A program made the translations under genes and the position numbers. DNA of 64,000 bases from Haloarcula salinisoli (GTDB lineage Archaea > Halobacteriota > Halobacteria > Halobacteriales > Haloarculaceae), in assembly GCF_019599405.1 (NCBI RefSeq), contig NZ_RKLQ01000003.1, positions 62,001 to 126,000 of the forward strand, written 5' to 3'. Shown piece after piece: positions 9,231 to 31,807 of the stretch (position 1 is the first letter of the stretch; each line of letters begins with the position of its first letter). The notes beneath the pieces were generated by a model, which saw nothing but the letters and a program-made list of their open reading frames with translations, was not told the origin of the DNA and made no database searches.

Positions 9231-9620
9231 TCAGCAGACGATGACGCTGGCGCTGTACTGTCGGCCGTCGTACTCGACGACGTGTGGCGGGTCATCCCAC
9301 CGGTCGGGTAGTCTCTTGCCCAGCTCGACCGTGCCGTTTCTGACCCCGCGCCGGAACTCCCGCTGTGCCTGCGCGGAGAGATCCGAGTACTGTCGTGTCA
9401 TGTCGGCCTCAGAACCCCGCTCCTCGGAGACGACTTCGACGGTCAGGACGTACGGACAGTCGTAGTGCGATGCCGTCCTCGGTGTCGGTGTGGGTTCGGT
9501 AGGCGTCGCCGTGGCGGGCGGCGTCGGCGTGGTCGCCACCGGTGTCGTCTGTGTGGTCGCACAGCCACTTACGACTGCGAGCAGAGAGAGGCCGGCTAGC
9601 AGGAACGGCCTACGGTGCAT
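9231..9620 (-). CDS. Hypothetical lipoprotein
   Basis: 129 aa. The N-terminal signal (M-H-R-R-P-F-L-L-A-G-L) ends in a lipobox V-V-S-G-C with the lipid-acceptor Cys at residue 20. A Thr/Pro linker (about 22-48) and a small globular domain with two further cysteines (55 and 129) follow. Likely anchored to the outer face of the membrane. No family recognised. The ATG at 9618-9620 is chosen because it places the signal sequence at the N terminus; the longer frame upstream does not look coding. Confidence 0.8.
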   Translation of the reverse strand: MHRRPFLLAGLSLLAVVSGCATTQTTPVATTPTPPATATPTEPTPTPRTASHYDCPYVLTVEVVSEERGSEADMTRQYSDLSAQAQREFRRGVRNGTVELGKRLPDRWDDPPHVVEYDGRQYSASVIVC

Positions 9621-14531: not shown

Positions 14532-15779
14532 ATGACGAGAAACGCAGATCGTCGAATCGAGAATCTGCAGGACCGCATCGAGCGGGCCGAGGAGATGAGT
14601 GGAGACGACCAGGACGTGCTGCAGGCCTTCGACAATAGGCTGGCCCTGCTCGGGAGCCAGTACGGCAAGGAACGCCGTGAGAAGCTGCTCAGGCACTGTG
14701 TGCGCATCGCCGAGGAAGTCGGTGGACTGGCCGACGCCCTCGACGACAAGCGAGCTGCCGAGGACATCGTCCGCTGGATTCACGACACCTACGACAACGA
14801 GGAGTCCAACCGGGACTACCGGGTCGCGCTGCGGATGTTCGGGAAGCACGTCAGCGACGGCGACGAGATTCCCGATAGTATCGCGTGGGTCTCGGCGACC
14901 ACGTCGAAGGACTACAACCCGATGCCGAACCCGGCGAAGATGCTCTGGTGGGACGAGCACATCAAGCCCATGCTGAACGAGTGCCGACACGCCCGAGACA
15001 AGGCGCTCATCGCCGTCGCGTGGGACTCCGGGGCCCGGAGCGGGGAACTCCGAAACCTCACCGTCGGCGACGTTTCCGACCACAAATACGGTCTGCGTAT
15101 CTCCGTCGACGGGAAGAAGGGCGAGCGATCGGTCATCCTGACGACCGCCGTTCCCCAACTCCAGCAGTGGCTGAACGTCCATCCGGGGAAGGACCAGCCG
15201 GACGCCCCGCTCTGGTCGAAACTGAGCAAGCCCGAAGATATCAGCTACCAGATGAAGCTCAAAATCCTCAAGAAGCACGCCCGGAAGGCTGGCGTGAACC
15301 ACTGCGACGTGACTTTCACCCGGATGCGCAAGTCTTCCGCTTCCTATCTCGCTTCGGACGGCGTGAATCAGGCCCACATCGAGGACCATCATGGCTGGGA
15401 CCGGGGTTCTGACGTTGCTTCCCGTTATGTTGCTGTCTTCGGCGACGCCAACGACCGCGCTATCGCGCAGGCCCACGGCGTCGACGTGGAAGAGGACGAA
15501 TCCGACCCGATTGCTCCGGTCACCTGCCCCCGCTGCCGGAACGAGACGCCCCGCGACGAACCCACCTGTGTCTGGTGCAGTCAGGCGATGGACGCGGCGG
15601 CTGTCGAAGAACTGGAGCGGGAACAGGACGAGATTCGGTCGGAACTGCTGCAGATTGCCCACGACGACCCTGACTTCCTCGACAACCTCGACCGCGTCGA
15701 GCAATTCATCGAGCTCGGTGACGAGAACCCCGAACTCCTCCGTGAGGCCAGGGAGTTCGCCAGCCTCACCGAGAGCTGA
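14532..15779 (+). CDS. int: Tyrosine recombinase/integrase with C-terminal zinc ribbon
   Basis: 415 aa. An N-terminal helical core-binding region (1-150) precedes a catalytic domain with Arg169 (G-A-R-S-G-E-L), a Lys in the K-K-G beta hairpin (195-196), Arg266, His287 (D-H-H-G-W) and the nucleophile Tyr299 (S-R-Y-V). The usual HxxR box reads T-R-M-R (263-266), so its His is replaced by Thr. Then follows a zinc ribbon (C332-x2-C335, C346-x2-C349) and an acidic helical tail, as in haloarchaeal plasmid and virus integrases. It sits 46 bases from the left att repeat and should catalyse integration into and excision from tRNA-Phe. Confidence 0.92.
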   Translation: MTRNADRRIENLQDRIERAEEMSGDDQDVLQAFDNRLALLGSQYGKERREKLLRHCVRIAEEVGGLADALDDKRAAEDIVRWIHDTYDNEESNRDYRVALRMFGKHVSDGDEIPDSIAWVSATTSKDYNPMPNPAKMLWWDEHIKPMLNECRHARDKALIAVAWDSGARSGELRNLTVGDVSDHKYGLRISVDGKKGERSVILTTAVPQLQQWLNVHPGKDQPDAPLWSKLSKPEDISYQMKLKILKKHARKAGVNHCDVTFTRMRKSSASYLASDGVNQAHIEDHHGWDRGSDVASRYVAVFGDANDRAIAQAHGVDVEEDESDPIAPVTCPRCRNETPRDEPTCVWCSQAMDAAAVEELEREQDEIRSELLQIAHDDPDFLDNLDRVEQFIELGDENPELLREAREFASLTES

Positions 15780-17377: not shown

Positions 17378-18091
17378 TTAGTTCCTACGAGGAGCAAAGC
17401 CACCTCGGTTGTATACCTCTTCAAATGTTATTTTATTAGGGTGCTGTTCGAACAGTCTCTTACCTTCTTCTGGGTCTATATCGATCCAACGCCCAGGTGT
17501 GAATAGTGGCTCCGTGATTGTCTCACCAAATTCGTCCTCACAGACAATCTCGACCCAGAAATTGAACTCATAATGTTCGTTTCTGAATGCCTCACCCACC
17601 CCTGAAGTGAAATCACCGTAGGCCTGTCCTTCTGGCGCAGGAAAAGGGGGTCGACCAGAAAATTCTACACCTCTCTCACCACCACTGATAGCCCTCTCTT
17701 GGATTTTCTCGCCATCTTCACATCTCTGTATACTATGCTCTATCGATCGCGTATTGATTCTATCAGGGTCACGATCGTCGGAGAGCAAGTTACGTTCATC
17801 ATCCTTTGGAAATTCTACCGTGGTACGCAAGCGCATATTCTTCGCTACGCCTTTGCCATAGTTTGACACATATGCGCTTATTTCATTACCATCTTTGTCA
17901 CAATCGCCGACTTCTATCAATGGCTCTTGTTCAAGCCTGAGAACTTTGTGCTGCTGATGATACAATCCAACCAGTAATGCGCTCAGAATCAGAGAACCTA
18001 TAGCGCCAATGACTTCTCCCCACTTTAGCAACCAACCGAAAATGTACCCCTGCAATAACATCGGTATCATACTAATTGGGACAAATTTCAC
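17378..18091 (-). CDS. Membrane-anchored protein coupled to the restriction-modification gene
   Basis: 237 aa. Two hydrophobic segments near the N terminus (about residues 5-20 and 27-46) precede a large soluble region rich in strands (L-I-E-V-G-D-C-D-K-D-G-N, then A-K-N-M-R-L-R-T-T-V-E-F), resembling a beta-sandwich. Its ATG overlaps the stop of the restriction-modification gene by four bases (ATGA at 18088-18091), so the two are translationally coupled. The gene is AT-rich compared with host genes. I recognise no family. The coupling suggests an accessory of that enzyme. Confidence 0.75.
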   Translation of the reverse strand: MKFVPISMIPMLLQGYIFGWLLKWGEVIGAIGSLILSALLVGLYHQQHKVLRLEQEPLIEVGDCDKDGNEISAYVSNYGKGVAKNMRLRTTVEFPKDDERNLLSDDRDPDRINTRSIEHSIQRCEDGEKIQERAISGGERGVEFSGRPPFPAPEGQAYGDFTSGVGEAFRNEHYEFNFWVEIVCEDEFGETITEPLFTPGRWIDIDPEEGKRLFEQHPNKITFEEVYNRGGFAPRRN

Positions 18092-21000
18092 TCCCCGATA
18101 GCTTCCTCTACAATCTCGATTTCCTCGTCGGTCAGCCCATACAGCTCGTAGACGATGTCGTCGATGAGGTCGTCCGTCCGCGCAATTTTCTCTTCAAGCT
18201 CTTCGGCCCGTTCCTTCGTTCCGACGTAACTCTCTAGCCCGTCCCGAACCTCGTCGACGGCGGGCAGCGTGAGCTTCCGCAGCCGGTCGACCAGCGAGTT
18301 CGTTTTCGTCGCGGTCTCGCGGAAGCCTGCGAACCCACCGGCCTCGTCGACGGCGACTGGGACGAACGCCTCGATCAGGTCGGCCTCCGTCTCGGTGAGA
18401 TCCGTAATCCGCAGTGCCGGCAGCGGGTCAGTCTCCGTGTATCCCCACTGGTCGGTCTCGTAGGCGTCCTCGTCGTCGGGCTTGTAGCGGGCTGTGAGTC
18501 GGATCTCGACGGTGGTACCTGATTCACGGATCACAGTGACCTCGCCGATACGGAGATTCGGTTTCTGTTCGGTGGTTTCTTGCAGGATGGAATCTGCCGA
18601 GCCTTCAGGGGGCTGGGTGAGACCGACATCGGCGAGTGTTGGGCCGTCGGAGTAGGTTCCGAGATGGTCACGCAAAGACAAGTTCAGTTCACCGAGCGAC
18701 TGTTTTCTAGATTTAATAGTTTCAGCTAAATAGATAAGTGAATGATATTGACCCTTCTCATCAGTAGGGACTTGTTCACTATTGGAGTCATATTCCGCCT
18801 GAGGGCTGTTTAGTGTATCTGAACTAATCTCTTTGACTGGAAGTTGGCGGATATCTTCCGGATACACATCAGTATAACTACCCTGTAGCGAACCAGTGGC
18901 TAGGAAATTACTGAAATAGTATCCCACGAGGGCAGAGTTAGCTATCGCATTAAGATACCGAATATCGTACTCATTTGCATCTTCAGTAGCTTCGTAATCA
19001 GCAGGTCCACGATGTTCTTCCATTTCTGGAGACCAATTAACTGCATGAGCAGCACGCTGTGCTGTGTAATACTTATCGTAGTCAAAGCACGAAATCAGCC
19101 TATTATTTTCCCCACTTATACGCCTGAAAATCACTTTTGGATTTTCAAATAACTCTGGATATTTCGGCCGATGGAAATGTGACTGTTTGGACTCATAATC
19201 AATGTATCTACCTTTCCACTCTAAGGCATATCGCTGGATATCCCCACCTTCCAAATATGGCTTAAAGCCGTCTCCCTCTTTCGAGTCATGCAGCACATCT
19301 TCTTTGTCAAAATCCAGTTCACTGTGACTTCCACTGTGAGCTACAACACCGGGATTAACACAACAAATAGATCCTAAAGAGACTGATATACGTTCTATTG
19401 CGTTTTTCAATTCAAGATCTTCTGGCGAAAGATTGACTCTGAATGCAGAATGCTTGTACTCAGTAAAAGTATCCTGATCCAATGCAAACAGCTGATTATA
19501 TGATAAATCCGAGTAGCCAACAATCTGAGTCTCTTCATCTGAGGTCGATTTCGAAACTGTGTAAATAACACACTGTCTGTCCACACCAGTAAATACTTCT
19601 AACTCCCCAAAATCTACTAATCTTACAATATGTGTGTTTTCTATGAAATAATTCCGGAGGGCACGAGCATATTTTTCAGTCTTTAGTGAGCTTGGGGTGA
19701 TGAATGAATGATTACCTCCATATCTGGTAAGCTCTGTTGCTCTGTAGCAGAAGAGAATGTACAGATCCCAGTGTCCCACAGCAGGCTCAGGATACATATT
19801 CTCGTATGTTCGCGGTGAAATGGAGTGGTTCTCTGTTAATTCCCAATTTGACACATACGGCGGATTCCCAACCACCGCATCAAACCCAGCCCCACCTAGT
19901 CGCTCCCCATCCTCTCCGAAGAACACTTCGGGAAACTCCAGTTCCCAGTGGAAGAAGTCCTCCTCGTCGGCCATCGCCTGCGCACTCGTGAACCAGTCTT
20001 CACCCTGTATCTCGGCCCACTCGTCGCTATCTTCGATAGCGCCGGCCATCTCCTCGTAGACGCCTTCGGGCACGTCCAGCCCGAACGCCTCGGCGGTGTG
20101 GACGTTGGCGATTTCGAAGAGCCGCTGATACAGCGGGTCCTCGCGTATCTCCTCGTATATCTCCTCCATCGACTTGATGTCCGCCAGGTCGTCGTTGTCG
20201 ATGGCCAGCAAGTCCTCCATGAGGTCCATCACGTGCTCCAGTGTCTGCTGGCGAGCGCGGGCGAACGCCTGCGTGAGCGTCAACTGACCACCGTTCTCCT
20301 CGGTATCGTCGCTCAGTACCTCCGAAATATCCGACCCCACCAGTGAGTTCCCGGCCTTCAGGTGGTGGTCAAGGAATGCCAGCGGCTTGTCCGCAGCCAG
20401 CGTCTCCAGCCACATCGACAGTTTCCCCAGCTCGACGGCCATGCCGTTGACGTCGACGCCGTAGATGCACTCTTTCGCTATTGTCCGGCGGAGTTCCTGC
20501 TCGTCGTAGGACTGTATCTCCTGCTCGCGGACGACTTCCATCACCTGCTCGGTTAGATACCCCGTCGCGCTGGTGAGGAAGTGTGCCGATCCCATCGCCG
20601 GGTCCAGAATCTTCAGGTCCAGCACTTCCTGCCAGAACCGACGGAAGTACTCGGTATCACTCGGTTCCAGGCCGTCGGCTTCCAGGTCGGCTTTGATGTC
20701 GTCTAGCAGCGGGTCGACTGTCTCCTCGACGATGTAGCTCACCACGTAGTCCGGGGTGTAGTACGCACCCGTGGCCTTCCGCTCGCCGTCGTCGTTGACG
20801 ACGTACAGTTCCCCTTTCTCGACCGTCTCGACGGCGTCGGCCACGCTCACCTCCGTCCCGGGCTTCCAGACCTGCCCTCCATCCTCGGCGACCGCGGCGT
20901 AGGGCTCCGACGCGATGCGGAATTCGTGTTCGAGCAGTCCCTCGTAGATGCTTCCAAGGTGGCGCGTGTCCAGGTCGGCGTAGTCGGCCAGCACTGGGTT

Positions 21001-22218
21001 CCCATCTTCCCCTTCGGTTGTTCCGAGGCGGTGGATTACCTCCGCGATGTAGCGGTCGGCTACTTCGTTCTCGGCCAGGAACTCGTGGGTCTCTTCGTCG
21101 AAGAGCCCGCCGTTGTAGGGCGGAATCCCCAGTTTCTCCTTCCCTTCGTCGACGAGCCCGAAGAGGTCCTCTAGCTGTCCCCAAATCTGGGTGGCGTAGC
21201 CGCTGTAGTCGTCGTAGGAATCGCCCGAGGTAATGTCCTCGTGAATCTCCAGCCGAATCTGGTCCAGGCTGAAGTGCTCCTCGAATTCAGCCTGTGCTTC
21301 TGGGTCATCGGGATGGATCAACCCTCGCGATTCGGCGTAGAGGACGAACATCAGCCGGTAGAGCAACACCAGCGACTGCTCTTTCAGCTCCTCGCGGGCG
21401 TCCTCGTCGTCCGGGTCGATGTCGAGGTCGTTGGTGTGGATGAACCCCTCGCCCAGTATTCGCAACGCGGTGAAGACGTTGTCCTGCAGGTCCTCACCGA
21501 GTTCCTGGGCTGCGGTCTCCGATTCGTTCCAGACCGTATCGAGGAACGACGTTCCCGCCACCTCGCGGAACGCTGCCGGTCGGAAGAACGTATAGAAGTA
21601 TTTGAACTGCTCCAAGTCGCCGGACTCCAACAGCTCGGGAAGGTCGACTTCGTAGTAAATCTCGGTCGCGTAGTCTTTGGTCCCATAGAGTCGCCACTTC
21701 TTCCCGTCGGTGAGAATCCCCCACTTCAGCCGCTCCGGTGTGTGCTCCAGATAGTACTTGATCTGGTGCGATGCGTCCCGATAGGACCGCTGTTCGTTGA
21801 ACCGCTTGGTGAAGTCGGCGTCCCACTGTTTCGCTTCCAGAACAGCCGACGCGAGCCCGTACATCGCTTCGGTCTCGCCGTCACGCTTCCGCTTGGCCGC
21901 ATCGCGGCGCTTCTCGTCCGATTCAAACAGGAGGCGGTCGTTGTATCCGCCACTGTCGGGCAGTGTCGTCTCCGATAGCGTACCGAACCCGAGAACATCG
22001 AGCACTTCGTCGATCCACGAATCGAGGAGTTCGTCCTCGTTGTAGGAGCTGACGAGTTCGCCTTCCAGGTCCCACAGGTGCTGCAGTGCCTCAAACGCTT
22101 CTTCGGCTTCGTCGTCACACTCCCACTCTTCCAGGTCGTCGATTCGTTCGTCGAGATAGTAGCCAGAGAAAAGGCTCGAATTGCGGTATGGTGTCGAGCT
22201 AAGAGTGGCCTGACTCAT
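18088..22218 (-). CDS. Single-chain restriction-modification enzyme (type IIG/Eco57I- or PglX-like)
   Basis: 1376 aa from the ATG at 22216-22218 (a TTG at 22237 would add seven). N-terminal region: D94, then E128-A-K130 (V-L-E-A-K-Q-W), fitting a PD-(D/E)xK nuclease core. Methyltransferase: A-Y-Y-T-P near 485, motif I D-P-A-M-G-S-A-H-F (539-547), acidic D-V-N (about 589) and motif IV N-P-P-Y (785-788), typical of N6-adenine methylation. The segment after NPPY (about 785-1185, DNA 18.65-19.87 kb) is strikingly AT-rich and corresponds to the target-recognition part, while both flanks are GC-rich. So the gene is mosaic. It cuts or marks DNA at one recognition site; without other BREX genes nearby a stand-alone system is likelier. 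Confidence 0.85.
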   Translation of the reverse strand: MSQATLSSTPYRNSSLFSGYYLDERIDDLEEWECDDEAEEAFEALQHLWDLEGELVSSYNEDELLDSWIDEVLDVLGFGTLSETTLPDSGGYNDRLLFESDEKRRDAAKRKRDGETEAMYGLASAVLEAKQWDADFTKRFNEQRSYRDASHQIKYYLEHTPERLKWGILTDGKKWRLYGTKDYATEIYYEVDLPELLESGDLEQFKYFYTFFRPAAFREVAGTSFLDTVWNESETAAQELGEDLQDNVFTALRILGEGFIHTNDLDIDPDDEDAREELKEQSLVLLYRLMFVLYAESRGLIHPDDPEAQAEFEEHFSLDQIRLEIHEDITSGDSYDDYSGYATQIWGQLEDLFGLVDEGKEKLGIPPYNGGLFDEETHEFLAENEVADRYIAEVIHRLGTTEGEDGNPVLADYADLDTRHLGSIYEGLLEHEFRIASEPYAAVAEDGGQVWKPGTEVSVADAVETVEKGELYVVNDDGERKATGAYYTPDYVVSYIVEETVDPLLDDIKADLEADGLEPSDTEYFRRFWQEVLDLKILDPAMGSAHFLTSATGYLTEQVMEVVREQEIQSYDEQELRRTIAKECIYGVDVNGMAVELGKLSMWLETLAADKPLAFLDHHLKAGNSLVGSDISEVLSDDTEENGGQLTLTQAFARARQQTLEHVMDLMEDLLAIDNDDLADIKSMEEIYEEIREDPLYQRLFEIANVHTAEAFGLDVPEGVYEEMAGAIEDSDEWAEIQGEDWFTSAQAMADEEDFFHWELEFPEVFFGEDGERLGGAGFDAVVGNPPYVSNWELTENHSISPRTYENMYPEPAVGHWDLYILFCYRATELTRYGGNHSFITPSSLKTEKYARALRNYFIENTHIVRLVDFGELEVFTGVDRQCVIYTVSKSTSDEETQIVGYSDLSYNQLFALDQDTFTEYKHSAFRVNLSPEDLELKNAIERISVSLGSICCVNPGVVAHSGSHSELDFDKEDVLHDSKEGDGFKPYLEGGDIQRYALEWKGRYIDYESKQSHFHRPKYPELFENPKVIFRRISGENNRLISCFDYDKYYTAQRAAHAVNWSPEMEEHRGPADYEATEDANEYDIRYLNAIANSALVGYYFSNFLATGSLQGSYTDVYPEDIRQLPVKEISSDTLNSPQAEYDSNSEQVPTDEKGQYHSLIYLAETIKSRKQSLGELNLSLRDHLGTYSDGPTLADVGLTQPPEGSADSILQETTEQKPNLRIGEVTVIRESGTTVEIRLTARYKPDDEDAYETDQWGYTETDPLPALRITDLTETEADLIEAFVPVAVDEAGGFAGFRETATKTNSLVDRLRKLTLPAVDEVRDGLESYVGTKERAEELEEKIARTDDLIDDIVYELYGLTDEEIEIVEEAIGE

Positions 22219-22928: not shown

Positions 22929-23465
22929 ATGGTTCAGTTTCCCGACAGCGCTCCCTCTGATGACTCGGATTCCGCTTCCCGCTCGACCCCAGCGGAATCT
23001 GAGTCTGTCGAGCGCCAGATTGGCGAGCTGGTGATGCGGTATCTCCGCCAGTCTCCCGCCGTCCGAGTGTGGTACGATGGAGAGCGTATCAGAGCCGAGC
23101 AAAGCACGGCTCAGAACGAACAGGAGCGAACGCTGACATCGTCCACTACTACCAGCGACGCGAATAGCGAACGAACAGAGCAAAACCGACAGACGGCATC
23201 GCCCTCTCTATCAGAGACGCAGAGCGCTAACAGAGATAGCGCTCTCTCTACGGATAGCGAGACAGCGGGTCACGAATTGAACGGCATTTCGAACGTTCAA
23301 AATCTCACAGAGAAACAGGCCAAAGCGTACCTCCTCTTGGAACAGACCGGTGGGGACATATCCATCAGTGAGCTGGCCGAGCGGGCGGGCTATTCGAGCA
23401 AGGGTGGTGCTCACAGCGCAAAGGAGAAATGGGTTGATACTCGTGGTTCAGATAGGCCCCTATGA
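22929..23465 (+). CDS. HTH protein with long disordered N-terminal region
   Basis: 178 aa. Residues 1-120 are Ser/Thr/Glu-rich and likely disordered. The C terminus (about 127-170) is a wHTH: L-T-E-K-Q-A-K-A-Y-L-L-L, then I-S-I-S-E-L-A-E-R-A-G-Y-S-S-K-G-G-A-H. It lies directly downstream of the repeat region, so it may bind those repeats (inference). It converges with the second recombinase and overlaps its end by six bases. Confidence 0.65.
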   Translation: MVQFPDSAPSDDSDSASRSTPAESESVERQIGELVMRYLRQSPAVRVWYDGERIRAEQSTAQNEQERTLTSSTTTSDANSERTEQNRQTASPSLSETQSANRDSALSTDSETAGHELNGISNVQNLTEKQAKAYLLLEQTGGDISISELAERAGYSSKGGAHSAKEKWVDTRGSDRPL

Positions 23466-24059
23466 GAAGGTCGCGCCCTCGAACTCCCGGTTCACCACTT
23501 CGGCCGTAGGCGCGTTCAGGTACGGCTCGACCGCGGAGAACGACGACCACCCACCGACTTCCATCACTACTCTGGGGTTCATCCGCTCACGCACCAGGAG
23601 CGTCTGCGCGTAGTACCGCCGAAGATCGTGACTCGACAGCTTCTGCCAGTCGGCGTCACCGGTCTCCTCCGCGACTCGCTCGGCGGTGGCCTTGACCCGG
23701 CGCTGTACCGACCGCTCGCTCAGGTCGACGATCGGCTCGTCGCGGTCGATGTCCTCGACGTTGGCGTAGCGGAGTAGTTCGCTCTCGATTTGCTCGGGGA
23801 GGTAAGCGTCGCGAGGTTTCCCGCCGCTCCCCTCAGTGTCCTTCCCCTGGGGAACGCGAAGCCGGGCGTGGCCGTCGACGTGCTTGATGTGTTCCGGGTG
23901 TATCTGGGGTATCTCGAAAGACCGAAGCCCGACTTCCCCGCCGAGCTGGATGATGAGGGAGTCCCGGTAGCTACCCGCGCTCTGCTTGAGGGTCTTGTAC
24001 TCGTCCGGCGTCAGCCAGCAGCGGTACGAATGGTGGTTCTCGTTTCGCTCGATGCGCAT
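23460..24059 (-). CDS. Small catalytic-domain tyrosine recombinase
   Basis: 199 aa, with a catalytic domain and almost no separate core-binding domain. Arg is in G-L-R-S-F-E-I (about 45-51), a Lys in the K-D-T segment (73), then H-D-L-R-R (143-147), G-G-W (168-170) and the likely nucleophile Tyr in V-E-P-Y-L-N (about 178). All catalytic positions are present, including the HxxR that the larger integrase lacks. The role is unclear: dimer resolution of the plasmid form, inversion of cargo, or a remnant of another integration. Confidence 0.85.
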   Translation of the reverse strand: MRIERNENHHSYRCWLTPDEYKTLKQSAGSYRDSLIIQLGGEVGLRSFEIPQIHPEHIKHVDGHARLRVPQGKDTEGSGGKPRDAYLPEQIESELLRYANVEDIDRDEPIVDLSERSVQRRVKATAERVAEETGDADWQKLSSHDLRRYYAQTLLVRERMNPRVVMEVGGWSSFSAVEPYLNAPTAEVVNREFEGATFS

Positions 24060-25990: not shown

Positions 25991-26470
25991 ATGTGCCAAG
26001 GGTATTTTACAACGACTGACGGTCAGCGACGGCCTCGCTTATCTTCGACTGCGTTCCTAGCCACGGATGTTAACAATGACCTTTCGTTCAAATCGGGCAG
26101 TAATGTTGATTTCTTAGTTGATACCGGAGCTGACACAACATGTTTCACCCGGGCCACGGCGGAAAAACTCGGTCTCTCCATCGGCAGCAGAGAGCCAACA
26201 GCCGATGTGAGCGGTGTTGGACCAGACACGGTCCCACTGTATATAATAGAGGAACCCTTCGTACTAGTTTTTGATGAGCGTGATGAAGAAACGCCAAATG
26301 ACTTCCACTATGAATATTTCAATGAAATGCATGTTCTCCCGTCGTTGGATGGTGATATTTTGGGGAGAGATTTCCTTAGCCGATTTGAGATCGATTGGTC
26401 TGATTATCATGACAGAATAAATATGGCAAGAATAGATGACGCTGAGGGCGATTACGACGTAATCGGCTAA
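25991..26470 (+). CDS. Retropepsin-like aspartic protease
   Basis: 159 aa. Residues 39-48 read V-D-F-L-V-D-T-G-A-D, the D-T-G-A catalytic motif of clan AA retroviral-type proteases (catalytic Asp44), followed by T-T-C-F. The flap-like region G-V-G-P-D-T-V and the C-terminal D-G-D-I-L-G-R-D-F-L (about 120-129) match the family's I-L-G-x-D-F-L signature. One catalytic Asp per chain implies a homodimer. No signal peptide, so cytoplasmic. AT-rich, as is its partner. Confidence 0.82.
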   Translation: MCQGYFTTTDGQRRPRLSSTAFLATDVNNDLSFKSGSNVDFLVDTGADTTCFTRATAEKLGLSIGSREPTADVSGVGPDTVPLYIIEEPFVLVFDERDEETPNDFHYEYFNEMHVLPSLDGDILGRDFLSRFEIDWSDYHDRINMARIDDAEGDYDVIG

Positions 26471-26975: not shown

Positions 26976-29021
26976 TCAAGCTACCTGAAGTTCGCCTTCT
27001 AACTCGTAAACCCGGCCTGTCTCTTTCAAATGTTCAATATCGTGCTCAATTGAGTCCTGATTAGCATTGACTGTCTCTTCTATTTTTTCTACCGTGGTCC
27101 CCCCGAGCTTTTTGATGGTTTGGATAATTACCCTTCGCCGTTGTTTCTGACTTTTCGCCTGTTCCGTTTCGATTATGTCCGCATCAAATTTGCCACTCTC
27201 AGGATCATAGCCCACTTGCTTCATCGACTTCGTCACGAGTTCAATTGCTCGTTCAACATCCTCAATCTCCACAGTATCCGAAAGACGAACCCGCGCACTC
27301 GACTCTGCCAGCCGCTGTATCGCCTCGACCTTGCGGAACGTCACGGGAATCGGCGAGTCGTCATCTTGCTCGCCAGCTCCAGCTCGGAACTCGACGAAGA
27401 ACTGTTTCAGTCGCTCCGCTACTTCGTCGTCCTCAATAATTGGACGACAGGTCTGCTTGGCGTGAGCGACGTAGGCCCGCATCACCGACCGATCTATCGC
27501 GGGCTCGACCCGCTGCTGTTCCTCGTCACTCAGCTCCTCTCCCCTAGTGTGACGGCCTGCAGCCTGCCGGCTCTGGACCATGTGCTCGACAACATCCGCG
27601 TCGTCCTCCCGGTCTGGCTCGTCGGACACCATGAACATCAGGTCGAACCGGGAGAGGAGCGTCGGGCCCATGTCGATCTGCTCGCCCTTCGGACGGTACC
27701 GCTCGAAGCGCCCGTCCTTCGGATTCCCCGCTGCAAGCAACGAAGTCCGAGCGTTCAGCGTAGCGTTGATACCGGCTTTGTTGACGTGGACCTGCTGGCT
27801 TTCCAGGGCGTCGTGCATCGAGGACACAGCGTCGGACTGCATCTTATCGATCTCGTCGACGCAGGCGATACCTCCGTCGGCCAACACCAGCGCACCAGCT
27901 TCCAGCCCCCATTCGGTATCTCCGAAGTCGTCAGATACAGCCGCTGCCGTCATTCCCGCCGCCGTCGCACCCTTCCCCGAGGCGTACGTCGACCGTGGCG
28001 CAATCTGGTCGACGTAACGGAGGAAGGTAGACTTCCCACAGCCGGGGTCACCGAGGAGGAGCATGTGCCAGTCGCCGCGGTCGCGGCTCCCGTCCGGGTA
28101 CTCGTGGGCCCAGCCGCCGAAGAGCTGCAGCGCGACGGCCAGCTTGACGTGTTCGTCGCCCCGGTGTTTCGGGTTGATCGAGTCGACGAGTAGCTGATAC
28201 GGGTCACCGCGTACCCCGTTGGCGATGGCTTCGATCTCCTCCAGGTGCTCGTCGACGTCGACATCGTCGTAATCGCTCTCCTCTTTCACGACTGAACGCG
28301 CGTCGAGGTTCGTGTCGAAGTCGAGCCCCTGGTCAGCTCCGGGCTCTTCGATGTCGAGAATCCCGGTCAGAACCACCCTGTCACCAGCGTCGAAGCCTTC
28401 TATCAGGTCGTCTTCGAGGTGCGCGTCGACGCTCTGTGCTTCTCCACCGTTCGTTTTCTCAGGCGGTTGCTGGATACGGGCGTACTGGTGGTCTATCCAG
28501 CTACTGGCGCTCGCGTCGAGCGAGAAGGGGCCCTGTCGTTCACACCCCTGGCACTCGTGCGGTTCTTGGAGACTCTCGCCATGCTGTGGAATCTCGGTCT
28601 GGGTCCCACACCGTTGGCACTCCCATACTGCTTCTGTGAGGCGCGGCTTCACGTCCGATACCTTCTGCACCTGTCCGCGGATATCGAGCAACTGGCCGAT
28701 GTTCTCGTGACGGGAGACAGCGGAGGGGTCGAAGACGTGCGTCTCCGGGAGGTTGTAGATGCGGACGTGAGCGTCGTCGAGTTCGACCGCGACCGGCAGG
28801 TCGTAGAGGCGGAGCGCTTCCTCCAGGTGCTCCTGCAGTTGCTTCGGATGGTTCCGCACATCGTCTGCGACATCCGGACTGAACCGGTACAGGTCGTCAT
28901 AGTCGACGTGGAGTGATTTCTCCTCTCGGGGGTAGCGTTGAGCGAGCTGTGCGATCTCTTCCGAGTAGTAGTCCCGGAAGAATTGTATCAGTTCTTCGGT
29001 GAGTTCGTGGTTTTCGGGCAT
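26976..29021 (-). CDS. mcm: MCM replicative helicase (element-borne)
   Basis: 681 aa from the ATG at 29019-29021 (a GTG at 29043-29045 would add eight). The N domain has a zinc-binding C135-x2-C138 and C157-x2-C160 and an OB-fold region. The AAA+ domain has Walker A G-D-P-G-C-G-K-S-T (324-332), Walker B G-G-I-A-C-V-D-E-I-D-K-M, and the arginine finger S-R-F-D. A C-terminal wHTH ends the chain. It forms a hexamer that unwinds DNA ahead of the fork. Its place inside a tRNA-bounded element suggests a plasmid replication protein, not the host MCM, though this cannot be proved from one window. An operator-like dyad lies right before the start. Confidence 0.9.
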   Translation of the reverse strand: MPENHELTEELIQFFRDYYSEEIAQLAQRYPREEKSLHVDYDDLYRFSPDVADDVRNHPKQLQEHLEEALRLYDLPVAVELDDAHVRIYNLPETHVFDPSAVSRHENIGQLLDIRGQVQKVSDVKPRLTEAVWECQRCGTQTEIPQHGESLQEPHECQGCERQGPFSLDASASSWIDHQYARIQQPPEKTNGGEAQSVDAHLEDDLIEGFDAGDRVVLTGILDIEEPGADQGLDFDTNLDARSVVKEESDYDDVDVDEHLEEIEAIANGVRGDPYQLLVDSINPKHRGDEHVKLAVALQLFGGWAHEYPDGSRDRGDWHMLLLGDPGCGKSTFLRYVDQIAPRSTYASGKGATAAGMTAAAVSDDFGDTEWGLEAGALVLADGGIACVDEIDKMQSDAVSSMHDALESQQVHVNKAGINATLNARTSLLAAGNPKDGRFERYRPKGEQIDMGPTLLSRFDLMFMVSDEPDREDDADVVEHMVQSRQAAGRHTRGEELSDEEQQRVEPAIDRSVMRAYVAHAKQTCRPIIEDDEVAERLKQFFVEFRAGAGEQDDDSPIPVTFRKVEAIQRLAESSARVRLSDTVEIEDVERAIELVTKSMKQVGYDPESGKFDADIIETEQAKSQKQRRRVIIQTIKKLGGTTVEKIEETVNANQDSIEHDIEHLKETGRVYELEGELQVA

Positions 29022-29031
29022 CGTGTGAATC

Positions 29032-29046
29032 TGTGAAGTCTTCACA
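29032..29046. promoter_or_regulatory. 15-bp palindrome before mcm
   Basis: TGTGAAG-T-CTTCACA, a perfect 7-1-7 dyad 11 bases before the mcm ATG. A near copy sits at 29223-29237. Likely an operator. Confidence 0.6.
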
Positions 29047-29222
29047 ACAGCCGCGGAGGCTGTTGATTCGCGATTACTGCGAGCGGTGCGAGCGGTTTGC
29101 GAGCGTACTAACAGCTACCGAACACTTGTTTACACAACCGTCCTACCCTGCAAATTCTAAGGTTTCAGACGGTTTCGCTCAGAGTGGACCAATCCGGTGG
29201 GGGCTTCCCCCGTTGCATCTGT

Positions 29223-29237
29223 TGTGAGGACTTCACA
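29223..29237. promoter_or_regulatory. Second copy of the mcm operator-like palindrome
   Basis: TGTGAGG-A-CTTCACA, one mismatch from a perfect dyad. It overlaps the stop of the coiled-coil/wHTH gene and lies about 200 bases before mcm. Confidence 0.55.
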
Positions 29238-29811
29238 GATTCTCGCCCTCCTGGTCAGCCGTGTACTTCCGGGGGAGAGTCCCAGCGTCGAGATCGAGCC
29301 GGAGCTCTCCGTTCGTGTACTGCAGGGCGCTCCCGTCGATGAGCCGGGCGGCACGCTCCATGTCCCGGTAGATGGTCGTCCGGTCGATGTTCGGGTAGTG
29401 GAGTGCCTCCTCGGCTTCGTCGCGGTCGACGGTCGCTGCAGGCGGCTCGTCGCGGCGCTCACGCGCTTTCGCCGCTCTGTGAAGGTGCTGGACAAGCGTC
29501 ACCGCGCGCTGCTTGCCAGTCATCTTGTCGGCGTTCTCGATGACTTCCAGGATATCGGTGCGCGCATCCAGGCGCGCAACCTCCGTCTCCAGTTCGTCGA
29601 TGCGCTCTTCACGCGCTGCCAGCTCGTCCTCTAGCTCCTCACGTTCCTCGCGCTCGTCGTGAAGCTCCTCACGGAGTCCGGAGACCTGCTTCGAGAGGGC
29701 TCCGAGTCGCGCTTCCAGCGCCTGAACGGTGGTTTCGAGGCTCTCGTCCCCGGGGTTCGCGTCGGGAGCAGTGCCCTCGCCGTCGGGGCCGGTGTCGGTC
29801 ACGCCGACCAC
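29233..29811 (-). CDS. Coiled-coil and wHTH protein
   Basis: 192 aa. Residues about 25-85 form an acidic coiled coil (L-E-A-R-L-G-A-L-S-K, then E-R-E-E-L-E-D-E-L), then a conserved-looking M-T-G-K-Q-R-A-V-T-L-V-Q-H-L segment (about 95-108), and a wHTH-like region (Y-P-N-I-D-R-T-T-I-Y-R-D-M) near 140-152. This architecture is common in haloarchaeal plasmids as a DNA-binding protein. It lies directly upstream of mcm on the same strand and is the likely binder of the TGTGAAG dyads (inference). Confidence 0.72.
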   Translation of the reverse strand: MVGVTDTGPDGEGTAPDANPGDESLETTVQALEARLGALSKQVSGLREELHDEREEREELEDELAAREERIDELETEVARLDARTDILEVIENADKMTGKQRAVTLVQHLHRAAKARERRDEPPAATVDRDEAEEALHYPNIDRTTIYRDMERAARLIDGSALQYTNGELRLDLDAGTLPRKYTADQEGENL

Positions 29812-29868
29812 CCCCTGACAGACCCCCGGCTATGGGGGGTTGTCGTTCGGGCATCTAAACCGAGAAGG

Positions 29869-29885
29869 GTATGCCGCCTCCCGGA
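29869..29885 (-). other. Right attachment repeat (attR-like) within tRNA-Phe
   Basis: Identical to 14470-14486 and covers the acceptor and part of the T stem of the tRNA-Phe gene, which stays intact on this side. Confidence 0.85.
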
Positions 29886-29945
29886 TTTGAACCGGGGACA
29901 GCTCGATCTTCAGTCGAGTGCTCTCCCAGTCTGAGCTAAGGCGGC
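29872..29945 (-). tRNA. tRNA-Phe (GAA)
   Basis: 74 nt. The acceptor GCCGCCT pairs with AGGCGGC with discriminator A. The D arm is TAGCTCAGACTGGGAGAGC, the anticodon loop CTGAAGA gives GAA, and the T arm is GGTTCAAATCC. No intron; CCA not encoded. Target of the 15.4-kb element. Confidence 0.95.
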
Positions 29946-29997
29946 GCATATCGAGCGACGGTGAGGGTAGAAAAAAGGATTTCGATACCCCGCTGCC

Positions 29998-30117
29998 CTA
30001 GGGCAGAAAGAGGTCCGCGCTGTCGAAGGCCTCGCCACAGTCGTCACAGGTGTATTTCGTCCCGTCGTCCGTCGAGACGTGCCCTGCACAGTTGGGACAC
30101 GTCGACCCGTCTATCAT
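29998..30117 (-). CDS. 39-aa zinc-ribbon protein
   Basis: Translates as M-I-D-G-S-T-C-P-N-C-A-G-H, then Y-T-C-D-D-C-G-E-A-F. Two C-x2-C knuckles (7/10 and 24/27) form a complete zinc ribbon. Many haloarchaea carry such tiny CPxCG-type proteins. Just outside the element, host-like GC. Confidence 0.75.
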   Translation of the reverse strand: MIDGSTCPNCAGHVSTDDGTKYTCDDCGEAFDSADLFLP

Positions 30118-30698
30118 GTATGGTGGTACCGCCACACTGACTAAGTCGTTTTCGGCAGGTGACAGCGGGCTGGCGGATTCGCATCCGTCGGTTCGGCTGA
30201 CCGACGGTTAGAGGGGCGGATTCGAACCGGAGAGAGACTCACTTCGCTCGTCTTTCAGGGCTCGAATCCTCGTTGACCACACAGACGCCGCTGGCTCCTC
30301 GATTGCCTCACGGCTTCGCCGTTCGACTTTTCGTGTCGCTTCGCGCCACGCCTCGCTCGTCGCAGTCGCCCTCAGAAGTGGGTCGGGGCGGAACATCTTC
30401 TCACTCACGTTCGATACCGTCCCTGTGTAGTAGTGCCCAGCCAACGATTTTGGCTCCCGTACCGTCCCACTCGTGAAACGGTGGAATAGGACTCAGTATT
30501 CGAAGCCAGGTTCTTCGTCTCCAATCACTGAACCAGGCTGATCTGGACAGTTTCCCGCACTGTAGTTTGAGACAATGCAGTGACCGCTGGGAGAAACCAT
30601 TTGCAGCCTTTCACAGTGTGCTCCGCTTTGGCACCCCTCCATCTCAACTAAAACGGTGGAATTAGATAGAGTAGAAACAAGAATCATCCTATACAATC
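30118..30698. other. Non-coding interval with tRNA-Val-type T-arm units
   Basis: Contains a short fragment GGCGGATTCGCATCCG (30172-30187) and a complete unit at 30213-30271: GGGGCGGATTCGAACC, an inner hairpin AGACTC...CGTCT, and CTCGAATCC. The rest looks hairpin-rich (GCTTCGCCGTTCGAC). A 64-aa Cys-containing ORF (30493-30687, minus) is listed separately as doubtful. Confidence 0.6.
30493..30687 (-). CDS. Doubtful small Cys-containing ORF
   Basis: 64 aa, with C-Q-S-G-A-H-C-E-R-L and G-H-C-I-V-S and N-C-P, four cysteines. The start is 11 bases from the divergent membrane-protein start, leaving no room for two promoters, so at least one start is wrong or this is a remnant. Confidence 0.3.
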   Translation of the reverse strand: MILVSTLSNSTVLVEMEGCQSGAHCERLQMVSPSGHCIVSNYSAGNCPDQPGSVIGDEEPGFEY

Positions 30699-31307
30699 AT
30701 GGTAGGTGTTCCGCTTAGACTAAACGATATAGAGAACATAATTCGAGAAGATAGGCCAGGCCTCGCTTTCATTTCTGCTGCAGTTTACGCATTCTTCGCC
30801 GTTGAAAACCCATCAATTGACAACACTGTACGTGCGCTGAAAATCTTTGGATACAATCCACCGTCTATCGGTGTGATAGATCCTCAATCAGGATTTCTAC
30901 TGCTTTCTATACTAACTACCGCAACAGGCACGATTGGATACGTCTCGAAAGACGTGTATTTCGTGGAGTATGAGCCTGGCGAATTTGAAAGGGCTAAAAA
31001 GATTACTTACTCGTTGAGTGTATCCCTAAGACTATTACTAATTTTTGCCGCTTTCGGCTTGATCTTTTCACATTCTATTGTTGGAACTACAGATTTATCC
31101 TATCCTTTCGCAGGGTTGGTTATCCTCCAAACCATCGCTGTATTCGCTTATTCCAGACAATTGGGCGTAATGGCATTCATTGCAGCTATATTGGGCCTTC
31201 TATTCCTATCAGCAGCACTAATCGAGTGGCTGCTTGGAAACTTCTCATTTCCAATAGCGGTTATTTTATTGGCGATTTTTCTACTCTTGTATATAAGAGA
31301 TAGGTGA
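30699..31307 (+). CDS. AT-rich multi-pass membrane protein
   Basis: 202 aa with five to six hydrophobic segments (about 22-36, 63-80, 107-127, 134-150, 158-176, 182-198). Codons are far more AT-rich than host genes (Ile ATA, Leu TTA). It lies between tRNA-Val-derived units at 30213-30271 and 31397 onward, so it is probably imported cargo. No family recognised. Confidence 0.65.
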   Translation: MVGVPLRLNDIENIIREDRPGLAFISAAVYAFFAVENPSIDNTVRALKIFGYNPPSIGVIDPQSGFLLLSILTTATGTIGYVSKDVYFVEYEPGEFERAKKITYSLSVSLRLLLIFAAFGLIFSHSIVGTTDLSYPFAGLVILQTIAVFAYSRQLGVMAFIAAILGLLFLSAALIEWLLGNFSFPIAVILLAIFLLLYIRDR

Positions 31308-31396
31308 TGTTATCATCCTATAGCTGCAGGACATGATTTTCCCGGTGTCTCGTCCGAGCGCCGCGAGTCCGAGGAACAGCAGAGCTTTGCTCTGCT

Positions 31397-31725
31397 GGCG
31401 GATTCGAACCACGGTCACTCCGCTCCGCTTCGTTCCCTGGTTCGCATCCGCCGGCCGCTTCACACACGCGCCGCTCATGAGTGAGCGCCGCGAGAAGTTC
31501 AGTGGGTCCGGGCGGATTCGAACCACGCCGAGACGTGCTCGCGTCGCTGCGCGCGTCTCGTCTGCTTCGCATCCGCCGGATTTCACTCTTCGTTCCTCAC
31601 GTCCGTTCGTCACAGAAGAGTGGGTCCGGGCGGATTCGAACCGGAGGAAGACTCACTGCGTTCGTCTTCCAGGGTGTCGAATCCGTCCTCCGTCACGATT
31701 CTGTCGCTCGCGGATTGCTCGCGAC
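31397..31725 (-). repeat. Tandem tRNA-Val-derived palindromic units
   Basis: Three units lie downstream of tRNA-Val. They begin at 31397 (GGCGGATTCGAACC), 31504 and 31621 (both GGGTCCGGGCGGATTCGAACC, the complement of the tRNA-Val T arm and acceptor end). Each continues into an inner hairpin (for example GAAGACTC...CGTCTTC) and ends in an inverted T-arm-like TCGAATCC or TTCGCATCC. Period about 107-117 bases, ending with the true tRNA at 31734. Confidence 0.8.
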
Positions 31726-31733
31726 AGGAATAG

Positions 31734-31807
31734 TGGGTCCGGGCGGATTCGAACCACCGACCTCGGCCTTGTAAAGGCCACGTCATAACCGACTAGACCA
31801 CGGACCC
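31734..31807 (-). tRNA. tRNA-Val (UAC)
   Basis: 74 nt. The acceptor GGGTCCG pairs with CGGACCC, discriminator A. The anticodon stem is TGGCC/GGCCG with loop TTTACAA, anticodon TAC. The T arm is GGTGG-TTCGAAT-CCGCC. No intron, CCA not encoded. Confidence 0.93.

What the first reader, a model, noticed from the sequence alone, without database searches (positions are those of the whole stretch)
18650..19870. Restriction-modification gene has an AT-rich target-recognition block inside a GC-rich frame
Within one 1376-aa ORF the segment immediately after the NPPY motif, roughly residues 785-1185, switches to AT-rich codons, while the nuclease/methylase part and the 3' end remain GC-rich. The switch coincides with the expected specificity domain, as if a foreign recognition domain had been swapped in.
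Basis: partly seen in the sequence, partly recalled or inferred. Interest (0 to 1): 0.7.

Follow-up and report, generated by a model that had tools for sequence, protein, structure and literature searches.

The report
Swappable AT-rich target-recognition cassette
This haloarchaeal restriction enzyme has a GC-rich conserved body and an AT-rich middle segment that chooses its DNA target; relatives swap that segment between otherwise near-identical copies, and it is AT-rich in almost all of them, so the base composition marks an exchangeable part and not one recent foreign insert.

Summary
In the 1376-aa ORF on the minus strand (18088-22218), third-position GC falls from 0.80 to 0.35 over window 18703-19902 and recovers to 0.75. 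The gene is a stand-alone Type IIG restriction-methylase of a family common in haloarchaea. The AT-rich part is the second half of the methylase, from just after NPPY, plus a TaqI/HsdS-like target-recognition domain. It is an exchangeable cassette: relatives with 90-96% identical frames carry blocks only 19-23% identical, including two copies in one genome. One breakpoint lies directly after NPPY, the other mostly near residues 1182-1206. Block and frame trees conflict massively.

'A foreign domain swapped in' is only half right. The AT-rich dip is present in 81 of 83 full-length haloarchaeal homologues, is unrelated to frame GC, recurs in haloarchaeal HsdS recognition domains and most bacterial relatives, and persists in block lineages whose synonymous sites are nearly saturated. 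It is absent from a conserved CTAG-type orphan methylase. So low GC is a standing property of exchangeable recognition segments, not a mark of a recent low-GC donor. Why it is maintained (absence of GC-restoring recombination, or turnover through an AT-rich halophile pool) is open.

The parts
18091..22218 (-). Type IIG restriction-modification ORF, 1376 aa from M8 (coding part, without stop)
   Evidence: Pfam Eco57I 3.5e-34, TaqI_C 1.7e-12; PADLOC REase_MTase_IIG 1.1e-52, DrmMI 5.6e-99; M8 invariant
19867..22218 (-). Conserved GC-rich front frame, residues 8-791: nuclease region, helical spacer, front half of methylase
   Evidence: GC3 0.80; 40-89% identity to homologues in the two front segments
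21829..21939 (-). PD-(D/E)XK-type motif D101...E135-A-K137
   Evidence: D101, E135, A136, K137 invariant in 25 homologues; predicted strands around it; weak fold match to DrdV and HsdR; same EAK as HVO_A0006 (PMC4389544)
20587..20604 (-). AdoMet-binding motif I, DPAMGS (residues 546-551)
   Evidence: invariant in 55 homologues
19855..19866 (-). Catalytic motif IV NPPY (residues 792-795); left edge of the exchange unit
   Evidence: breakpoint at residue 793-798 in 15 of 17 pairs
18670..19854 (-). Exchangeable AT-rich cassette, residues 796 to about 1190 (right edge varies, mostly 1182-1206)
   Evidence: GC3; breakpoints; discordance; 36 block classes against 1 front-frame class
19423..19854 (-). 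Back half of the methyltransferase fold (about 796-939) within the cassette
   Evidence: structure match to CamA, M.TaqI and HsdM chains
18685..19404 (-). TaqI/HsdS-like target-recognition domain with terminal helix (about 946-1185)
   Evidence: Pfam TaqI_C at 993-1135; CamA Z 23, M.TaqI Z 21, S subunit 1yf2 Z 12
18091..18669 (-). Conserved GC-rich C-terminal domain (strands, then long helices), residues 1191-1383
   Evidence: GC3 0.75; mostly 50-89% identity; model

Best explanation
The gene encodes a single-chain Type IIG restriction-modification enzyme: PD-(D/E)XK-type nuclease region, gamma-type adenine methylase, one target-recognition domain and a conserved C-terminal domain. Everything from just after NPPY to the end of the recognition domain's last helix is exchanged as one cassette by recombination between the conserved sequences on both sides, which would change the recognised site while restriction and modification stay matched, since both use the same recognition domain (exchange shown by comparison; specificity change inferred). 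The AT-rich composition is a standing property of these exchangeable segments, not evidence that this copy recently came from a low-GC organism (shown by comparison). Most likely the conserved frame is kept GC-rich because it still recombines with homologues, while the unalignable cassettes are outside that process and follow the underlying AT-biased mutation (inferred, much less certain; the confidence below is for the enzyme, the exchange and the standing composition, not for this last step).
For: Domain content. Exchange: frame 96/90% but block 23/19% between L037 and L010, two copies in one genome; frame 51% but block 74% between L087 and L060; pairwise identity of front and C frame correlates (rho 0.54), front and block not (0.05). 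Breakpoint directly after NPPY in nearly all pairs. Block data reject frame trees by over 9,000 log units, against 730-1,340 between the two halves of the front frame. 36 block classes versus one front-frame class at 40% identity. Copies on many haloarchaeal plasmids. Standing AT-richness: block GC3 0.44-0.46 in 83 homologues whatever the frame GC3 (rho -0.1), observed 0.43 against 0.80 expected. Same-block pairs at 74-79% amino-acid identity have fourfold sites only 35-38% identical, yet GC3 0.43-0.50 beside front frames of 0.82-0.95. Same dip in HsdS (28 of 29). Flat GC3 of 0.70-0.81 in a conserved orphan CTAG-type methylase. GC3 hardly depends on column conservation inside block or front frame.
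Against: No strain-level series shows a swap happening; one genome per species was searched. Recognition sites were not measured. The deepest block alignments are unreliable, which inflates the topology test. The two halves of the front frame also differ in tree, so the frame recombines or is transferred too. Blocks of relatives outside haloarchaea track host GC with a smaller offset, so the effect is strongest in haloarchaea. The cause of the low GC is inferred only. The HsdS comparison used the first ~500 bases from each match start as the recognition domain.
Confidence: 0.85

Rival explanations
1. Recent single import: this copy received its recognition domain from a low-GC organism and has not yet ameliorated.
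For: Sharp GC3 change; near frames L005, L006 and L008 carry blocks with only 18-33% identity to ours.
Against: The dip is near-universal in the family; no close donor found; haloarchaeal blocks carry a halophile signature (D+E 0.14-0.18, K 0.05, against 0.12 and 0.09 in relatives outside haloarchaea); near-saturated synonymous divergence at stable low GC3.
Confidence: 0.07
2. Circulating pool: cassettes turn over continually through an AT-rich reservoir inside halophiles (plasmids, islands, viruses) and never stay long enough to gain GC. This competes with the last step of the best explanation, not with the exchange itself.
For: Copies on plasmids; rare accessory ORFs nearby have GC3 0.38-0.57.
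Against: Frames on the same plasmids stay GC-rich (L010: 0.84-0.86 in front, 0.70 at the end); block hits among 391 haloarchaeal genomes at E<=1e-20 appear to lie in this gene family or fragments of it; near-saturated divergence without GC gain.
Confidence: 0.3
3. The recognition domain needs AT-rich codons for its own function or expression (for example weak mRNA structure or slow translation during folding).
For: The dip recurs in unrelated hosts and in HsdS.
Against: A conserved methylase with its own recognition region shows no dip; GC3 changes close to the exchange edges and not at the start of the recognition domain.
Confidence: 0.12

Closest known systems
Type IIG restriction-modification enzymes (Eco57I, BpuSI, MmeI, DrdV)
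   Same: Single chain with predicted nuclease region, N6-adenine methylase and recognition domain; structural match of the methylase-recognition part to BpuSI and MmeI (Z about 12)
   Different: Long haloarchaeal form with an extra conserved ~190-aa C-terminal domain; exchange unit includes the back half of the methylase
DOMO / recognition-domain movement in HsdS and Type IIG S subunits (Furuta et al. 2011, PMC3077401)
   Same: Recognition domains replaced as units by recombination at conserved flanks
   Different: Those are separate S subunits with two domains and DNA repeats; here the unit lies inside a fused enzyme, begins at catalytic motif IV, and differs in base composition from its frame
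HVO_A0006 / HVO_A0237 of Haloferax volcanii (PMC4389544, PMC5867850)
   Same: Described as fragments of a haloarchaeal Type IIG gene; HVO_A0006 carries the same EAK nuclease motif
   Different: Split and partial there; intact here. Homology to this exact family is taken from the papers, not aligned here
BREX PglX and DISARM DrmMI
   Same: Related methylases; best PADLOC model is DrmMI; structure match to PglX/BrxX
   Different: No partner genes found beside it; PglX model scores far below cut-off

Membership tests
Type IIG restriction-modification enzyme | N6-adenine methylase motifs I and IV in one chain with a recognition domain | tested here: met
   DPAMGS and NPP(Y) conserved; Eco57I and TaqI_C Pfam hits; CamA/M.TaqI/BpuSI folds
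Type IIG restriction-modification enzyme | nuclease domain in the same chain | tested here: inconclusive
   D101...E135-A-K137 invariant in 25 homologues with predicted strands, but the fold match to DrdV/HsdR is weak (E 0.015-0.06)
Type IIG restriction-modification enzyme | cleaves and methylates DNA at one site | not testable with these tools
   needs expression or methylome
Exchangeable recognition domain (domain movement) | unrelated recognition segments between near-identical flanks | tested here: met
Exchangeable recognition domain (domain movement) | the same recognition segment found in divergent frames | tested here: met
   L087/L060: front frame 51%, block 74%
Exchangeable recognition domain (domain movement) | the swap changes the methylated motif | not testable with these tools
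   needs SMRT or nanopore methylomes
DISARM DrmMI | partner genes (helicase, DUF1998 protein, phospholipase D-like protein) nearby | tested here: not met
   Pfam scan of nine neighbouring ORFs between 14.5 and 31.3 kb found none
BREX PglX | NCBIfam PglX model above its curated cut-off | tested here: not met
   80.6 bits against a cut-off of 500

The most novel reading that the evidence does not exclude
Within one gene, the GC content of GC-rich haloarchaea is kept up by homologous recombination (GC-biased conversion or recombination-aided selection): the alignable frame stays at GC3 0.8 while cassettes that cannot pair with their neighbours sit at about 0.44, close to the mutational equilibrium. 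Exchangeable recognition domains would then be a built-in control experiment for what sets genomic GC.
Probability: 0.3. Interest if true: 0.75.

Novelty: new variant of a known kind. Interest (0 to 1): 0.5.

Why it matters
Recognition-domain exchange is known, but here it runs through one of the commonest restriction enzymes of a whole archaeal class (matches to the query protein in 305 of 391 genomes, which include related methylases), with a fixed edge at the catalytic motif and a composition mark visible in raw sequence. Two practical consequences: low GC inside such genes should not be read as recent import, and the mark can be used to find exchangeable modules. It also offers a within-gene comparison for the open question of why GC-rich genomes stay GC-rich.

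Tried and rejected
Single recent import: rejected because the dip is family-wide. Amino-acid composition: rejected by the codon-usage control. Fast evolution as such: rejected, since variable front-frame columns are GC-rich (0.79-0.81) and conserved block columns AT-rich (0.43-0.46). A general property of DNA-recognition segments: not supported, a conserved orphan methylase is flat. Phage collection: only distant matches at 24-27%. Block GC3 rises weakly with identity to the nearest block (rho 0.34, p 0.002); too weak to separate the pool and recombination readings. Direction of substitution could not be polarised: same-block pairs are too diverged. First topology-test scripts failed for technical reasons. 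No paper in the held library was found that reports AT-rich recognition domains as a general feature; the searches used a few phrasings only.

Full report
Observation. The ORF runs from 22239 (TTG; functional start most likely M8 at 22218) to 18088 on the minus strand. GC3 is 0.80 up to about codon 780, 0.35 over codons 780-1179 and 0.745 after that; the gain in log-likelihood is more than ten times the largest of 100 shuffles. Re-weighting for amino-acid content does not remove it: 0.34 observed against 0.79 expected.

What the gene is. Pfam finds an Eco57I methylase domain and a TaqI_C specificity domain at residues 993-1135; PADLOC finds Type IIG and DrmMI models. D101, E135 and K137 are invariant in 25 homologues, in the pattern of a PD-(D/E)XK nuclease, the motif type reported for HVO_A0006 of Haloferax volcanii (PMC4389544); the predicted fold around it is plausible but matches known nucleases only weakly. 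The predicted structure of residues 440-1383 (mean pLDDT 75, above 80 in most of the block) matches CamA (Z 23), M.TaqI (Z 21), BpuSI and MmeI (Z about 12) over residues 779-1185, and S subunits over about 943-1185. So the AT-rich block is the back half of the methylase plus the recognition domain. No BREX or DISARM partner genes were found nearby.

The family. The protein has matches in 305 of 391 haloarchaeal genomes (the count includes related methylases and partial hits), related genes at about 40% in sister classes, and 51 plasmid records, 28 of them covering at least 80% of the query.

Exchange. I fetched 90 homologues and compared segments. Around our gene, frames at 74-89% identity surround blocks at 15-48%. 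Between other pairs it is starker: front frame 96% and C frame 90%, with block halves at 23% and 19%, for L037 and L010, which lie in the same genome G297. Its contig of 240,419 bases equals in length Halobaculum roseum plasmid NZ_CP082287.1, where one search finds a copy at the matching position. Conversely L087 and L060 share a block at 74% in front frames at 51%. Breakpoints fitted on codon alignments fall at residues 793-798 on the left in 15 of 17 pairs, directly after NPPY, and mostly at 1182-1209 on the right, with a few later. Front and C frame identities correlate across pairs (rho 0.54), front and block do not (0.05). Block data reject the frame trees by about 9,400-9,600 log units; the two halves of the front frame reject each other by 730-1,340, the frame's own background of recombination or transfer. 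At 40% identity there are 36 block classes and one front-frame class.

Where the composition comes from. In 83 full-length homologues, GC3 averages 0.81 (front), 0.46 and 0.44 (two parts of the block) and 0.74 (C part). Block GC3 does not follow front-frame GC3 (rho -0.10 and -0.12) and is lower than it in 81 of 83. The family-mean profile falls over about 20 codons before NPPY and rises over about 60 codons after residue 1180. The same dip is seen in haloarchaeal HsdS (about 0.51 against 0.74 in the upstream neighbour gene, lower in 28 of 29) and in relatives outside haloarchaea (0.365 against 0.49, lower in 60 of 66), including the AT-rich hosts (0.24 against 0.33), which a random import model would not predict. 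It is absent from 14 orthologues of a conserved orphan methylase of the CTAG type, flat at 0.70-0.81 (the CTAG assignment rests on its motif, from my own knowledge, and on published conservation, PMC10609329). Within block and within front frame, GC3 hardly depends on column conservation.

Age. Block pairs at 74-79% amino-acid identity have fourfold sites only 35-38% identical, close to saturation, yet both copies sit at GC3 0.43-0.50. The blocks are more acidic and poorer in lysine than relatives from outside haloarchaea, and the nearest relatives of our block are haloarchaeal members of this family at 44-47%. These facts fit long residence in halophiles without GC gain.

Mechanism, shown and inferred. 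Shown by comparison: a cassette with a fixed left edge at motif IV is exchanged between conserved frames. Inferred: recombination acts in the conserved flanks, and the swap changes the recognised site. A reason for the left edge is that NPPY is the last strictly conserved stretch before the variable part, so it is where homology ends. For the low GC, two readings remain: loss of GC-restoring recombination inside unalignable segments, or turnover in an AT-rich halophile pool. The first is favoured because frames with the same plasmid history remain GC-rich and rare accessory ORFs beside the gene have the same low GC3 (0.38-0.57), but that is not decisive; the weak rise of block GC3 with availability of relatives fits both.

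Prior knowledge. Domain movement in S subunits is established (PMC3077401); haloarchaeal surveys describe patchy restriction genes (PMC6471742) and more than one Type IIG system per genome (PMC10609329). In the passages searched I found no report of this cassette or of its family-wide composition.

Noticed in passing
17378-18091 (-): 237-aa protein with an N-terminal hydrophobic segment, start overlapping the stop of the restriction gene; GC3 0.43; no Pfam, NCBIfam or PADLOC family, and no homologue in the other genomes' fetched loci.
   Followed up: partly
14532-15779 (+) and 23460-24059 (-): Two tyrosine recombinases flank the restriction gene at high GC3 (0.82, 0.84), while rare ORFs between and beyond are AT-rich.
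   Followed up: partly
26976-31807: An MCM-type helicase gene near tRNA-Phe (29872-29945) and tRNA-Val (31733-31807), perhaps part of an integrated element.
   Followed up: no
25991-26470 (+): Small ORF with a retroviral-type aspartyl protease domain (PF13975) in an AT-rich stretch.
   Followed up: no
L043: Relative whose C-terminal domain is also replaced: 28% identity and GC3 0.36 there, suggesting that the exchange unit sometimes runs to the gene end.
   Followed up: partly
L034, L009, L080, L063: Some family members are reported with internal stop codons (G068, G349, G205, G220), probably decaying copies.
   Followed up: no
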